Source: Qipengyuania aquimaris
GTDB lineage: Bacteria; Pseudomonadota; Alphaproteobacteria; Sphingomonadales; Sphingomonadaceae
NCBI RefSeq assembly: GCF_009827445.1
Contig: NZ_WTYI01000001.1
Location: forward strand, 2,494,381-2,558,380
DNA length: 64,000 bases
Direction: 5' to 3'
This document shows positions 28,210 through 32,385 of the stretch, in pieces. The position numbers were made by a program, and so were the translations under genes. The first letter of the stretch is position 1. Every line of letters starts with the position of its first letter. Under the pieces are notes generated by a model. The model worked only from the letters and a program-made list of their open reading frames with translations, did not search any database and was not told the origin of the DNA.

Positions 28210-28857
28210 TTACCAGCGGACCAGCGGCGGAATTGCGAACCTGCCGACCAGCGCCATCAGGCCTACGGGCGCAATGTGCCACATGCCGAGGTGGTCGATC
28301 GTGTCGATCGGGCACGCAAGGCCATAGGCAAAGCTGCCGATCGCGCCTGCTGCAATGCCCGTGTATGTTCCTGCGGCATTGAGCGAAACCGGCGCACCGC
28401 GGCGCAGCCACAGCACCAGCGTTGTCGCAGTTACGAGGCCAAACGCCGCTCCGGCAAGAAAGCAATCGAGCCCGTAGGCGTCGTGCGACAATGCCGAGAC
28501 CAGGCCGCCTGCACCCAGCATGAGTAGCGCGGTCAGCGGTAGCAGAGCGAGCATTGCCGACGACCAGCGCGCGCCATCATGGGTGTTGCCGACGCGCGGG
28601 CTGGCCATGCGCAGGACGGCCAAGGCCGCTGCTGCTCCAACCATGCCGAGCATTCCGTTGGCGATGAAGAAAACCCCCGACGCCTGTCCGGATACGATGC
28701 CGTGCCAAAGTCCATCGAGCAATTCGACGAGTACAACGGTGGCCACAGCCGACAACGCCACCAGTGCGATACCGTGTGTAAGCCGGATCGGTTTCACCGG
28801 GGCGAGATCGCCCGCCAGATCGTCGATCAGGGAATTAGGAACCCGGTTCATTGTCAT
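28210..28857 (-). CDS. nrsF: NrsF-type (DUF1109) membrane anti-sigma factor
   Basis: A 215-residue protein with a short cytoplasmic N-terminus (IDDLAGDLAPVKPIR) and six hydrophobic helices, the layout of NrsF, the anti-sigma factor of SigF in Caulobacter. The only two Cys, C132 and C182, each occur in an AYGLxC context (AYGLDC and AYGLAC) at helix ends, where periplasmic Cys are reported to be needed for metal sensing in NrsF. The ATG overlaps the sigma-factor TGA (ATGA), so stoichiometric synthesis is likely. It would hold the sigma factor at the membrane until metal stress releases it. Confidence 0.88.
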   Translation of the reverse strand: MTMNRVPNSLIDDLAGDLAPVKPIRLTHGIALVALSAVATVVLVELLDGLWHGIVSGQASGVFFIANGMLGMVGAAAALAVLRMASPRVGNTHDGARWSSAMLALLPLTALLMLGAGGLVSALSHDAYGLDCFLAGAAFGLVTATTLVLWLRRGAPVSLNAAGTYTGIAAGAIGSFAYGLACPIDTIDHLGMWHIAPVGLMALVGRFAIPPLVRW

Positions 28858-29384
28858 TCGGCCTTTTCTACGAGCGCAGACAGTTTCTTCAGTCCGCGAT
28901 GGATATTCACTTTGACCAGGCTTTCGCTCTGGCCGGTCTTGGCGGAAGCTTCGGAGATGGTCAGCCCTTCGATCTTGACCAGCTCGATAACCTCGGCCTG
29001 CTTGTCGGGGAGATGGACGAACAGCCGCTCCAGGCTCATGCGGGCCATGACGGCTTCTTCCTCGCTGTCCTCCGGCGCGTCGTGATCGCCAAGTTCGTCT
29101 TCGGCGCTGCGATAGACTTTGCGCAAATGGTCGATCCAGCGATAGCGTGCGATCGCGGCAAGCCAAGGATAGAAGGCCCGCGTCGGATCCCAGGTGGCGC
29201 GCTTGGTATGCACGGCCATCATGACCTCCTGCACCAGATCATCGAGCTGGGCGGGGGCCACGCGCTTCCTGAAATAGCGCTCGAGCCACAGCTGAACTTC
29301 GGACAGCAGCGCGCGGTAAATTGCGCGATCGCCTTTCTGCGAGGCGGCCATCATCTGTGCCATTGTGGCTTCATCGGCGATCAT
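28854..29384 (-). CDS. sigF: ECF sigma factor, SigF type
   Basis: A 176-residue sigma-70 family protein with region 2 (LDDLVQEVMMAVHTKRATWD, then PWLAAIARYRWIDHLRK) and region 4 (LPDKQAEVIELVKIEGLTISEASAKTGQSESLVKVNIHRGLKKL, helix-turn-helix). No region 3 or extra domain. The start at 29384 has a good GGAGG site; the frame upstream is shadow. It sits in the minus-strand unit bufA1-doxX-sigF-nrsF and is followed by its anti-sigma gene with ATGA overlap. The SigF-type promoter sequences next to bufA1 suggest that it drives its own operon. Confidence 0.93.
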   Translation of the reverse strand: MIADEATMAQMMAASQKGDRAIYRALLSEVQLWLERYFRKRVAPAQLDDLVQEVMMAVHTKRATWDPTRAFYPWLAAIARYRWIDHLRKVYRSAEDELGDHDAPEDSEEEAVMARMSLERLFVHLPDKQAEVIELVKIEGLTISEASAKTGQSESLVKVNIHRGLKKLSALVEKAE

Positions 29385-29409: not shown

Positions 29410-29868
29410 TCACTTGGCCCGCCGCGAGGCGAGCGGCGCATCGAGCGAGATCGCTCCTGCCCCGCGCGACACCAGCACTGCCGCCATCGCGACCCACACG
29501 ATGTGGGTGGTCCACCAGGCATCCGGGTAAACGAAGAACTGGATGACCAGCGTCATCACCAGCAGGGACAGTGCCGCAAAGCGTGTAAACAGGCCGAGCA
29601 CCAGCAGGACCGGGAAAACGTGCTCGGCATAGGTTGCCATCGGCGCAGCTATATCGGCCGGTATGGGCAGGCCGGTATACTCGTATTCGAACAGGAAATT
29701 GGCGTTATCGCTGATCGATAGCGCACTTCCTTCCTCCACCTTGGTGCGGCCGGACCTCCAGAAAATCCCGGCCAGCGCGATGCGGGTCAGCAGTAGCGCC
29801 AGGCCTTCCGGCAGGCGCGAAGCCAGCCAGTCGGTCAAGCGGTCGTAGGGGGTCAACAATCTCTGCAT
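29410..29868 (-). CDS. DoxX family membrane protein
   Basis: A 152-residue membrane protein with four hydrophobic helices. The segment LLLTRIALAGIFWRSGRTKVEEG and the later PMATYAEHVFPVLLVLGLFTRFAALSLL match DoxX. DoxX genes are frequent members of bufferin and related MNIO loci; whether they carry electrons through quinones or help place the precursor at the membrane is not settled. It lies 47 bases after bufA1 and 25 bases before sigF on the same strand. Confidence 0.9.
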   Translation of the reverse strand: MQRLLTPYDRLTDWLASRLPEGLALLLTRIALAGIFWRSGRTKVEEGSALSISDNANFLFEYEYTGLPIPADIAAPMATYAEHVFPVLLVLGLFTRFAALSLLVMTLVIQFFVYPDAWWTTHIVWVAMAAVLVSRGAGAISLDAPLASRRAK

Positions 29869-29915: not shown

Positions 29916-30203
29916 TCAGCGCTTGATCGCGGTCAGCGAGCCTTTGCCCTTGGGCGTCTGAATCGTTTCGCAGGTGCCCTTCTTGACCAGCTTCCAGGCA
30001 TTGCCCTGGTAATCGCGGGTGGATGTACCGGCGCAGCTTGTGCCCGGTCCGGCGGCGCAGTCGTTTTCGCCGGCTTTGGCGACGCCGTAACACTTCTCCA
30101 TAGCAGGGCGCTTCTGGGCCGCGGCCGGGCTGGCGACCATGGTGGTGGCAACGCCAGCGGTAAGGGCGAGCCCGGCAATACGGGCGATCGATTGGCTGTT
30201 CAT
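29916..30203 (-). CDS. bufA1: BufA1-type (DUF2282) bufferin precursor, copper-binding RiPP
   Basis: A 95-residue secreted precursor. The signal peptide ends around PAAAQ (residue 30). The mature ~65 residues carry four Cys at 38, 49, 57 and 78 in the DUF2282/BufA1 pattern: [20 protein letters not shown] and KGTC. In characterised bufferins the MNIO enzyme BufB with BufC converts Cys to thiooxazole groups, and the exported peptide binds copper. The start at 30203 has a GAGAGAG site; the frame upstream crosses the promoter. It is transcribed from a SigF-type promoter at 30260-30286 and leads into doxX-sigF-nrsF. Confidence 0.9.
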
Positions 30204-30259
30204 GGCAAGTCTCTCTCGAATGATGCGTCCGGGCGATTGTCGCCGGAACTGGCCTGTCA

Positions 30260-30286
30260 TTCGGGAGCGATCGCCGCACGGTTACC
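30260..30286 (-). promoter_or_regulatory. SigF-type ECF promoter of bufA1-doxX-sigF-nrsF
   Basis: On the minus strand GGTAACC (plus 30280-30286) and CGAA (plus 30260-30263) are separated by exactly 16 bases after GTAACC. This equals the GTAACC-N16-CGAA pattern I recall as reported for Caulobacter SigF. Transcription would begin near 30252, about 50 bases before the bufA1 ATG. Confidence 0.8.
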
Positions 30287-30308
30287 GGATCGGAAAATTT
30301 TTTCGGCT

Positions 30309-30334
30309 GTAACCGCTTCCGGGGCCGGCGCGAA
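30309..30334 (+). promoter_or_regulatory. SigF-type ECF promoter of bufA2-bufB-bufC
   Basis: GTAACC at 30309-30314, 16-base spacer, CGAA at 30331-30334, identical in spacing to the divergent promoter 23 bases away. Transcription would start near 30342, giving a leader of about 43 bases before ATG 30385. An ATG at 30352 falls inside that leader. Confidence 0.8.
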
Positions 30335-30384
30335 CGATCCTGTGTGCACCGATGCACGATCAAGATCACAAGGAACTGGATGCC

Positions 30385-30672
30385 ATGACACTCGCAACCC
30401 GCAAGACTGCCACTGCTGCTGCGGCGGCAGCTTTCGCCCTCAGCTCGATGAGCGCATTTGCTGCGCCTGCCCCCGCTGGTAGCAGCGGCGCAGCCATCAA
30501 TTCGGACGATGCGGTTCATTGTTATGGCGTGCACAGCTGTAAGGGCCAGGCCGACTGCGCGACCAGCGAAAACGCCTGCAAGGGCCAGAACGAATGCAAG
30601 GGCCACGGCTTCAAGGCGATGAAGGCCGGCGAATGCCTGACCAAGGGTGGCACCATCGGCGACATCGGCTGA
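30385..30672 (+). CDS. bufA2: Six-Cys bufferin precursor (BufA2-like)
   Basis: A 95-residue secreted precursor. The start at 30385 has AAGGA 10 bases upstream; an in-frame ATG at 30352 would only add a polar leader before the signal peptide. Signal cleavage is likely near AFAAP. The mature peptide has six Cys at 46, 52, 58, 65, 71 and 84, in [29 protein letters not shown] and GEC. This C-K-G-type spacing is that of the second bufferin precursor group maturated by the same MNIO enzymes. It shares the CYGV start with BufA1 in this locus. It is followed by a strong hairpin and then bufB, so precursor mRNA probably exceeds maturase mRNA. Confidence 0.85.
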
Positions 30673-30769: not shown

Positions 30770-31618
30770 ATGAGCGTTATCGCGCCATTTCACGGATTCG
30801 GGCTGGCCCTGCGCCGCACGCATTATACCGACTTCCTCGAGACCCAAGTGCCGGTCGATTTCGTCGAGGTGATCTCGGAAAACTACATGGTGGAAGGCGG
30901 CAAGCCGCTGCGCATCCTTGAGGAAACTCGCGCCCGCCATCCGGTGATATTGCATGGCGTTTCGATGTCTGTCGGATCCGCGCAGGGACTGGACGAGGAC
31001 TATCTCGAACGGCTTGCCGCGCTGGCGCAGAGGATCGACCCGCTATGGGTTTCCGACCACTTGTGCTGGACCCGGACGAGCGCCCACAATTCGCACGACC
31101 TCTTGCCGCTGCCGTTGACGGCGGAAGCATTGGACGTCGTGTGCGCGAACATCGATCGCGCGCAGGAAAAGCTTGGCCGGGCAATGCTGTTTGAAAACCC
31201 GTCAAGCTACCTCACCTTTCCCGAGGACGAGATGAGCGAATGGGCTTTCCTGTCGGAGATGGCCCGGCGCACCGGCTGCTATCTCCTGCTCGACGTCAAC
31301 AACGTCTATGTCAGCGCACAGAACCACGGGTTCTCCGCGAGCGAGTATTTCGCGGGCCTTCCACTGGACCGGGTGCGGCAAATCCATCTTGCAGGTCACA
31401 CACCTGCGACGGGAGAACGATCGCTCGTGATCGATACCCACGACCGTGAAGTCTGTGACGAGGTCTGGGATCTCTTTCGTGAAGTCGCAGCACTGACCGG
31501 ACCCGTCGCGACCATGATCGAACGTGACGACGCGATCCCGCCGCTTTCTGAACTGCTGGACGAACTTGGTCGGGCGAGAAATATTGCTGTCAATGCCGAG
31601 CAGGCGAGGGCCGCATGA
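30770..31618 (+). CDS. bufB: MNIO family bufferin maturase BufB (DUF692)
   Basis: Multinuclear non-haem iron oxidative enzyme, 282 residues, expected to modify Cys residues of the bufferin precursors in the cytoplasm. The TIM-barrel metal ligands are visible along the chain: EVISENYM, VILHGVSMSVGS, WVSDHLCW with HNSHDLLPLP, the acid of LFENPSSYL, LLLDVNNVYVSAQNHG, QIHLAGH, DTHD and IERDD. The start at 30770 has GGAG 8 bases upstream; the open frame further upstream is the hairpin region. bufC starts within its stop (ATGA), as expected for a complex of the two proteins. Confidence 0.95.
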   Translation: MSVIAPFHGFGLALRRTHYTDFLETQVPVDFVEVISENYMVEGGKPLRILEETRARHPVILHGVSMSVGSAQGLDEDYLERLAALAQRIDPLWVSDHLCWTRTSAHNSHDLLPLPLTAEALDVVCANIDRAQEKLGRAMLFENPSSYLTFPEDEMSEWAFLSEMARRTGCYLLLDVNNVYVSAQNHGFSASEYFAGLPLDRVRQIHLAGHTPATGERSLVIDTHDREVCDEVWDLFREVAALTGPVATMIERDDAIPPLSELLDELGRARNIAVNAEQARAA

Positions 31619-32385
31619 GCACGCTTGCCGAACGTCAGGCCGAGATTATGGCGAGCCTGCTCGACGAAGATCGACCGCTTCCAGCGAACCTTGGCCGGCG
31701 GCACGAAGCGGGACTGCAAATCTACCGCAACAATTATCGCACTGCCCTGGTCGAGGCGCTGCGGTCGACATTTGAAAGGACGGAGCGTCTGGTCGGCGAG
31801 GCGAGCTTTGCGCGCGCCGCGGCGCACCACCTCATCACCACTCCGCCCTCCAGCTGGACGCTGGACCTCGCGGGGTGCGGGTTTGCCGATACCTGCGCGG
31901 ACCTGTTTCCGCACGATCGCGAAGTTGCGGAACTCGCCTGGCTTGAATGGGCGATGCACCTCAGTTTCGTCGCACGCGATTCCAGTCCGACGAACCTCGC
32001 CGGATTTGCGCAAGCGACCGCAGAATTCGGTCCCGCTGATTGGGAAGGCCTGGTCTTGCGGTTCGCGCCGGGCATTGACCTACGGACCGTGCACCACGAC
32101 CTGAAGGCGCTCTGGTCCTCGCTAAATGAGGGAGAGGGGGAGGCGGACATCGTCCCGCTCGACACTCCCGCCACTGTCATCGTATGGCGCGAAGCCGAGA
32201 GACCCGTATTCCTGGCTGTCACCCAGGCCGAGGGCGACGCGCTCGCGTCGATGATTGCCGGAGCGAGCTACGGCCAAGCCTGCGCCGCGATGGCCGAGGC
32301 GCTCGGGCAGGAGCAGGCAGTCGAAACCGCCGGCGCGATGCTCGGCCGCTGGCTTGGCGAGGGACTTGTCGAGGGACTCGCCTAG
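31615..32385 (+). CDS. bufC: BufC, bufferin maturation partner (DUF2063)
   Basis: A 256-residue protein of the DUF2063 family. The N-terminal helical domain (LGRRHEAGLQIYRNNYRTALVEALRSTFERTERLVG) is the PF09836 signature, originally called a putative DNA-binding domain; in bufferin and HvfABC-like systems such proteins deliver the precursor to the MNIO enzyme. The C-terminal part is alpha/beta and Ala-rich. ATGA overlap with bufB shows translational coupling. Its TAG shares bases with the stop of the convergent SDR gene (32382-32385). Confidence 0.93.
   Translation: MSTLAERQAEIMASLLDEDRPLPANLGRRHEAGLQIYRNNYRTALVEALRSTFERTERLVGEASFARAAAHHLITTPPSSWTLDLAGCGFADTCADLFPHDREVAELAWLEWAMHLSFVARDSSPTNLAGFAQATAEFGPADWEGLVLRFAPGIDLRTVHHDLKALWSSLNEGEGEADIVPLDTPATVIVWREAERPVFLAVTQAEGDALASMIAGASYGQACAAMAEALGQEQAVETAGAMLGRWLGEGLVEGLA

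What the first reader, a model, noticed from the sequence alone, without database searches (positions are those of the whole stretch)
30260..30334. Back-to-back ECF promoters with identical GTAACC-N16-CGAA architecture
The minus strand has GGTAACC, 16 bases, CGAA (30286 down to 30260); the plus strand has GTAACC, 16 bases, CGAA (30309 to 30334). Both are exact to the base in spacing and only 23 bases apart at their -35 elements. They agree with the pattern I recall for Caulobacter SigF and with the sigma gene in the same locus. The close spacing raises possible interference or joint occupation.
Basis: partly seen in the sequence, partly recalled or inferred. Interest (0 to 1): 0.7.

Follow-up and report, generated by a model that had tools for sequence, protein, structure and literature searches.

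The report
Paired stress promoters of copper-buffering genes
Two mirror-image promoters for the same stress sigma factor sit back to back and switch on, in opposite directions, the genes for two copper-binding peptides and for the sigma factor itself; the arrangement is already known in other bacteria, but the distance between such promoter pairs appears to jump in steps of about one DNA helix turn, which I found reported nowhere.

Summary
Minus: GTAACC 30285-30280, CGAA 30263-30260. Plus: GTAACC 30309-30314, CGAA 30331-30334. N16 spacers, 23 bp between -35s. These are very probably ECF16 (SigF/NrsF) promoters of a bufferin (copper RiPP) locus. Minus operon: Buf1-DoxX-SigF-NrsF. Plus operon: Buf2-BufB-BufC. 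Divergent ECF16 promoters are already known in Caulobacter, S. meliloti and Brucella.

New from comparing about 160 loci:
(1) An A/T tract 11-16 bp upstream of the -35 marks paired and unpaired SigF-type promoters. Here one tract (30294-30303) lies between both.
(2) Gaps between the -35s cluster at 23-24, 33-34 and 42-44 bp, which suggests helical phasing. Support is strong with moderate phylogenetic collapsing and lost with severe collapsing. A small, partly prospective set gave p=0.05 (0.15 collapsed). It remains a hypothesis.
(3) A second SigF-type pair, face to face, lies at C1:1769191-1769264 between a disulfide-reductase-like flavoprotein gene and an SDR gene. Such a pair occurs in 22 of 60 genomes of the genus.

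No start site or SigF dependence has been measured in this organism.

The parts
30280..30286 (-). -35 element (GGTAACC) of the promoter reading left
30260..30263 (-). -10 element (CGAA) of the promoter reading left; start predicted near 30253
   Evidence: start site inferred from a mapped relative that starts 6 bp after the -10 box (PMC3420878)
30309..30314 (+). -35 element (GTAACC) of the promoter reading right
30331..30334 (+). -10 element (CGAA) of the promoter reading right; start predicted near 30341
   Evidence: start site inferred
30294..30303 (.). A/T tract AAAATTTTTT between the -35s, within the upstream-element distance of both promoters
29916..30203 (-). Buf1-type bufferin precursor (DUF2282), signal peptide, four Cys after it; start at 30203 with GAGAGA upstream
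   Evidence: (PF10048, 88.8 bits)
29410..29868 (-). DoxX / HvfX-like membrane protein
28854..29384 (-). ECF sigma factor, SigF-like (likely start at 29384)
28210..28854 (-). NrsF anti-sigma factor, Cys130 and Cys180 only
   Evidence: (PF06532)
30385..30672 (+). Buf2-type bufferin precursor, six Cys; start at 30385 behind AAGGAA
   Evidence: (NF050166, 100.7 bits, cut-off 60)
30770..31618 (+). BufB, MNIO bufferin maturase
   Evidence: NF050167, 375.8 bits, cut-off 310
31615..32385 (+). BufC, DUF2063 partner protein

Best explanation
The region is a divergent pair of SigF (ECF16) promoters. When a periplasmic stress such as excess copper inactivates NrsF, SigF is released and transcribes both operons from this 75-bp stretch. 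Leftward it makes Buf1, DoxX, more SigF and more NrsF (autoregulation). Rightward it makes Buf2 and the maturase BufB-BufC, which probably matures both precursors. The A/T tract between the -35s probably acts as an UP-like upstream element for both promoters, so that at a gap of 23 bp the two polymerases have one tract between them. Shown here by computation: the motifs, the genes, the conservation of the pair, the fixed position of the tract. Inferred from relatives: SigF dependence, metal induction, switching by NrsF. Inferred only: contact of the tract with the polymerase alpha subunit, and maturation of both precursors by one maturase.
For: Exact motif on both strands. Same motif mapped by 5' RACE for SigF targets in Caulobacter and for the sigma operon and its adjacent target in Brucella. 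SigF, NrsF and bufferin genes flank the pair. An exact back-to-back pair stands at SigF or bufferin loci in many Alpha-, Beta- and Gammaproteobacteria. The A/T tract is found 11-16 bp upstream of the -35 in unpaired promoters too: 0.78 A/T against 0.40 overall, shuffled maximum 0.53. Copper induces the SigF regulon and a sigF mutant is copper sensitive in Caulobacter (PMC8224329).
Against: No transcript, mutant or binding data in this organism. In Caulobacter the sigF promoter is only partly SigF dependent (paper, found), and rpoQ of Cupriavidus was reported to depend on the housekeeping sigma factor, so the leftward promoter may be used by another sigma factor as well. In S. meliloti the tested metals did not induce RpoE7.
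Confidence: 0.88

Rival explanations
1. Helical phasing, an extension of the best explanation: back-to-back SigF promoters are kept a whole number of helix turns apart (gap about 24, 34 or 44 bp, so -35 centres about 30, 40 or 50 bp apart). Both holoenzymes and their A/T tracts then lie on one face of the DNA and can share alpha-subunit contacts or bend the DNA together.
For: Gap histogram of 141 loci has R 0.66 at a period of 9.9 bp. One value per SigF clade and mode: p below 0.0002 at 33-54 blocks, 0.001-0.006 at 21-42 blocks. Close relatives with the same layout differ by about 10: within clusters of at least 70% SigF identity the gaps are 22-26 and 35, 32-33 and 43, 23-25 and 33, and 24-26 and 33 in one genus of the order searched.
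Against: p is about 0.15 when collapsed to 16-35 blocks. Changes between phylogenetically paired loci show no clear steps: 7 of 8-12 bp and 7 of 3-7 bp. The partly prospective set gave p 0.048, or 0.15 with one genus collapsed. Loci with gaps of 28-31 and 36-37 exist.
Confidence: 0.4
2. Mutual interference: the two promoters compete for the single A/T tract or for space, so that one fires at the expense of the other and the ratio of sigma factor to maturase is set by competition.
For: One tract is common to both promoters at gaps of 22-26 bp; predicted start sites are only about 88 bp apart.
Against: If each polymerase reaches only to about -40, the upstream edges would leave about 8 bp, so joint binding is possible (my estimate). 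Both operons belong to one response. No occupancy data.
Confidence: 0.2
3. The preferred gaps are only inherited: a few ancestral loci happened to have gaps near 24, 33 and 43 bp and their descendants kept them.
For: Gap follows layout and clade: Buf1|Buf2 mostly 22-26, Buf1|SigF mostly 32-34 or 42-44; significance is lost with severe collapsing.
Against: Jumps of about 10 bp between close relatives; the same three values recur in Alpha-, Beta- and Gammaproteobacteria.
Confidence: 0.5
4. Chance matches to a short motif without promoter function.
For: Single matches are barely above the reversed control in this genome (13 against 7).
Against: The pair is conserved with its spacing and gene context across genomes, control 0.
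Confidence: 0.02

Closest known systems
Caulobacter crescentus SigF-NrsF regulon (CC3252-CC3257 and CC2907-CC2905)
   Same: Motif GTAACC-N16-CGAA mapped by 5' RACE; targets DUF2282, DUF692, DUF2063 and DoxX genes; NrsF with two conserved Cys; copper-induced (PMC3511200, PMC8224329).
   Different: In the window sigF and nrsF lie downstream of Buf1-DoxX in one apparent operon, and a Buf2-BufB-BufC operon faces it; in Caulobacter CC3254-CC3257 holds its own DUF2282, DUF692, DUF2063 and DoxX genes.
Sinorhizobium meliloti RpoE7 (ECF16) locus
   Same: Sigma operon and a divergent four-gene target operon, with predicted ECF16 motifs upstream of both (PMC6180224).
   Different: Target genes are orthologues of CC3254-CC3257; no induction by H2O2, Cd or chromate was seen there.
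Brucella melitensis BcrS-AbcS (ECF16) and bcrXQP
   Same: ECF16 promoters mapped by 5' RACE at both the sigma operon and the adjacent target operon (PMC8315932).
   [quoted passage not shown] inducer is hypochlorous acid, not copper.
Cupriavidus metallidurans gigPABT / rpoQ-rsqA divergon
   [quoted passage not shown] copper and gold induced (PMC10304878).
   Different: rpoQ reported to depend on the housekeeping sigma factor; no RpoQ-dependent promoter shown.

Membership tests
ECF16 (SigF) promoter | GTAACC-N16-CGAA | tested here: met
   Exact on both strands
ECF16 (SigF) promoter | Cognate ECF sigma with an NrsF (DUF1109) anti-sigma factor in the genome | tested here: met
   PF06532 and sigma-70 region 2 and 4 hits in the same locus; NrsF Cys130 and Cys180. 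The NCBIfam equivalog models are hit below their cut-offs, so orthology to Caulobacter SigF/NrsF at that level is not claimed.
ECF16 (SigF) promoter | Transcription starts there and depends on SigF | not testable with these tools
   Needs 5'-end mapping and a sigF deletion
Bufferin biosynthetic cluster | Precursor with signal peptide and conserved Cys (Buf1 four, Buf2 six) | tested here: met
   DUF2282 hit and BufA2 equivalog hit above cut-off; Cys counted in the translations
Bufferin biosynthetic cluster | MNIO maturase and DUF2063 partner | tested here: met
   MNIO_BufB 375.8 bits against cut-off 310; DUF2063
Bufferin biosynthetic cluster | Modified peptide binds copper | not testable with these tools
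   Needs purification and metal binding
UP element (alpha-subunit binding DNA) | A/T-rich DNA in the region just upstream of the -35 | tested here: met
   Tract 11-16 bp upstream of the -35 in paired and unpaired promoters; 30294-30303 in the window
UP element (alpha-subunit binding DNA) | Stimulates transcription through the alpha C-terminal domain | not testable with these tools
   Needs mutation and in vitro transcription

The most novel reading that the evidence does not exclude
Divergent SigF promoters are rotationally phased: their spacing is restricted to about 24, 34 or 44 bp so that two polymerases sit on one face of the DNA around one shared tract or in-phase A/T tracts, which couples the firing of the sigma gene and its target operon.
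Probability: 0.4. Interest if true: 0.65.

Novelty: new member of a known kind. Interest (0 to 1): 0.42.

Why it matters
The locus adds a bufferin cluster in which a Buf1 and a Buf2 precursor are placed under one stress sigma factor by one compact divergent promoter. If the spacing rule is real, it is evolutionary evidence that two polymerases at back-to-back promoters interact or share upstream contacts, and many natural spacers are at hand to test it.

Tried and rejected
Housekeeping promoter for sigF: a GGCAnAAT element oriented towards sigF recurs in betaproteobacterial gaps of 42-44 bp, but I saw no -35 at the proper distance, so it stays a lead. MsrA site at C1:2137772: rejected, because the motif overlaps an inverted repeat (GGTGTGCC...GGCACACC) and an exact-type pattern found nothing in 10 relatives. 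The other single genome matches (L001-L007, L011) lie inside genes or too close to start codons. The ORF start at 30260 for Buf1 overlaps the -10 and was rejected in favour of 30203. Searches for papers on helical phasing of divergent or ECF promoters found no precedent, but the library lacks most subscription journals.

Full report
1. Observation. Single exact motifs are not rare in the genome (13, against 7 for the reversed pattern). The back-to-back pair is: 27 of 396 genomes of the order have one, the reversed control none.

2. Genes. On the minus strand: Buf1 precursor (DUF2282), DoxX, ECF sigma, NrsF. On the plus strand: Buf2 precursor, MNIO maturase BufB, DUF2063 protein BufC. NrsF has only two cysteines, C130 and C180, matching the pair needed for NrsF/OsrA function in Caulobacter and Bradyrhizobium. 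The window's genus is probably Qipengyuania: two genomes listed as the same genus share identical gap sequences with named Qipengyuania contigs (G366 with L111, G159 with L072).

3. Known background. Caulobacter SigF uses GTAACC-N16-CGAA, mapped by 5' RACE. The ECF16 consensus is tGTAACc-N16-CGAA. Brucella BcrS has mapped ECF16 promoters at its own operon and at the adjacent target operon. S. meliloti RpoE7 activates a divergent operon. The SigF regulon of Caulobacter answers copper, and a sigF mutant is copper sensitive.

4. Comparison across species. After profile annotation, 151 of all collected loci had a SigF-type neighbour. Main layouts: Buf1|SigF (74 loci) and Buf1|Buf2 as in the window (31 loci).

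5. The tract. A/T-rich DNA lies 11-16 bp upstream of the -35 in pairs with gaps of 42-44 bp, in the shared centre of pairs with gaps of 22-26 bp, and in 25 unpaired promoters. In the unpaired set the A/T fraction there is 0.78 against 0.40 overall, and no shuffle exceeded 0.53. It is thus a third element of the SigF-type promoter and not a by-product of pairing. In the window one tract, 30294-30303, is within reach of both promoters. That it works as an UP element is inference; synthetic A/T-rich UP elements in the -35 to -60 region have been used to make ECF promoters from GC-rich genomes work in E. coli (PMC3817407).

6. The spacing. The gap between -35s peaks at 23-24, 33-34 and 42-44 bp, with R 0.66 at a period of 9.9 bp. 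Because relatives share gaps, I collapsed loci by SigF clade and mode: p below 0.0002 with 33-54 blocks, 0.001-0.006 with 21-42 blocks, about 0.15 with 16-35 blocks. Phylogenetically paired loci did not show clear steps. Eight further bufferin loci gave p 0.048, or 0.15 when one genus was collapsed. Three of these eight come, made before the rule was written down, so the test is only partly prospective. I hold phasing as an open hypothesis.

7. A second pair. The same genome has a face-to-face SigF-type pair at C1:1769191-1769264. Each promoter points through the other into the gene beyond: a pyridine-nucleotide-disulphide oxidoreductase on one side and an SDR-family protein on the other. An exact face-to-face pair occurs in 22 of 60 genomes of the genus with no control match; in all 8 loci examined it lies beside the same oxidoreductase gene, with the SDR gene next to it or nearby. 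Its gaps, read from the matches (about 21-27, also 33 and 35), show no obvious steps. It is a likely addition to the regulon, though another ECF sigma factor with a similar motif is not excluded.

8. Mechanism and limits. I think SigF polymerase fires both ways from this region when NrsF releases SigF, with the common tract aiding both. Whether the promoters help or hinder each other is unknown. Nothing here measures transcription.

Noticed in passing
G000:C1:1769191-1769264 (L008 1501-1574): Face-to-face pair of exact SigF-type promoters between a disulfide-reductase-like flavoprotein gene and an SDR gene; such a pair occurs in 22 of 60 genomes of the genus, reversed control 0.
   Followed up: yes
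[quoted passage not shown] Buf1 here has no maturase of its own beside it, so BufB-BufC may mature both.
   Followed up: partly
Betaproteobacterial loci with 42-44 bp gaps, e.g. L061, L086, L110, L121: A recurrent GGCAnAAT element between the promoters, always oriented towards sigF in the cases looked at; possibly a housekeeping -10, in line with the RpoD dependence reported for rpoQ in Cupriavidus.
   Followed up: partly
window 29916-30260: The longest ORF for Buf1 begins inside the -10 element of its own promoter; automatic annotation may place the start too far upstream (30203 is more likely).
   Followed up: yes
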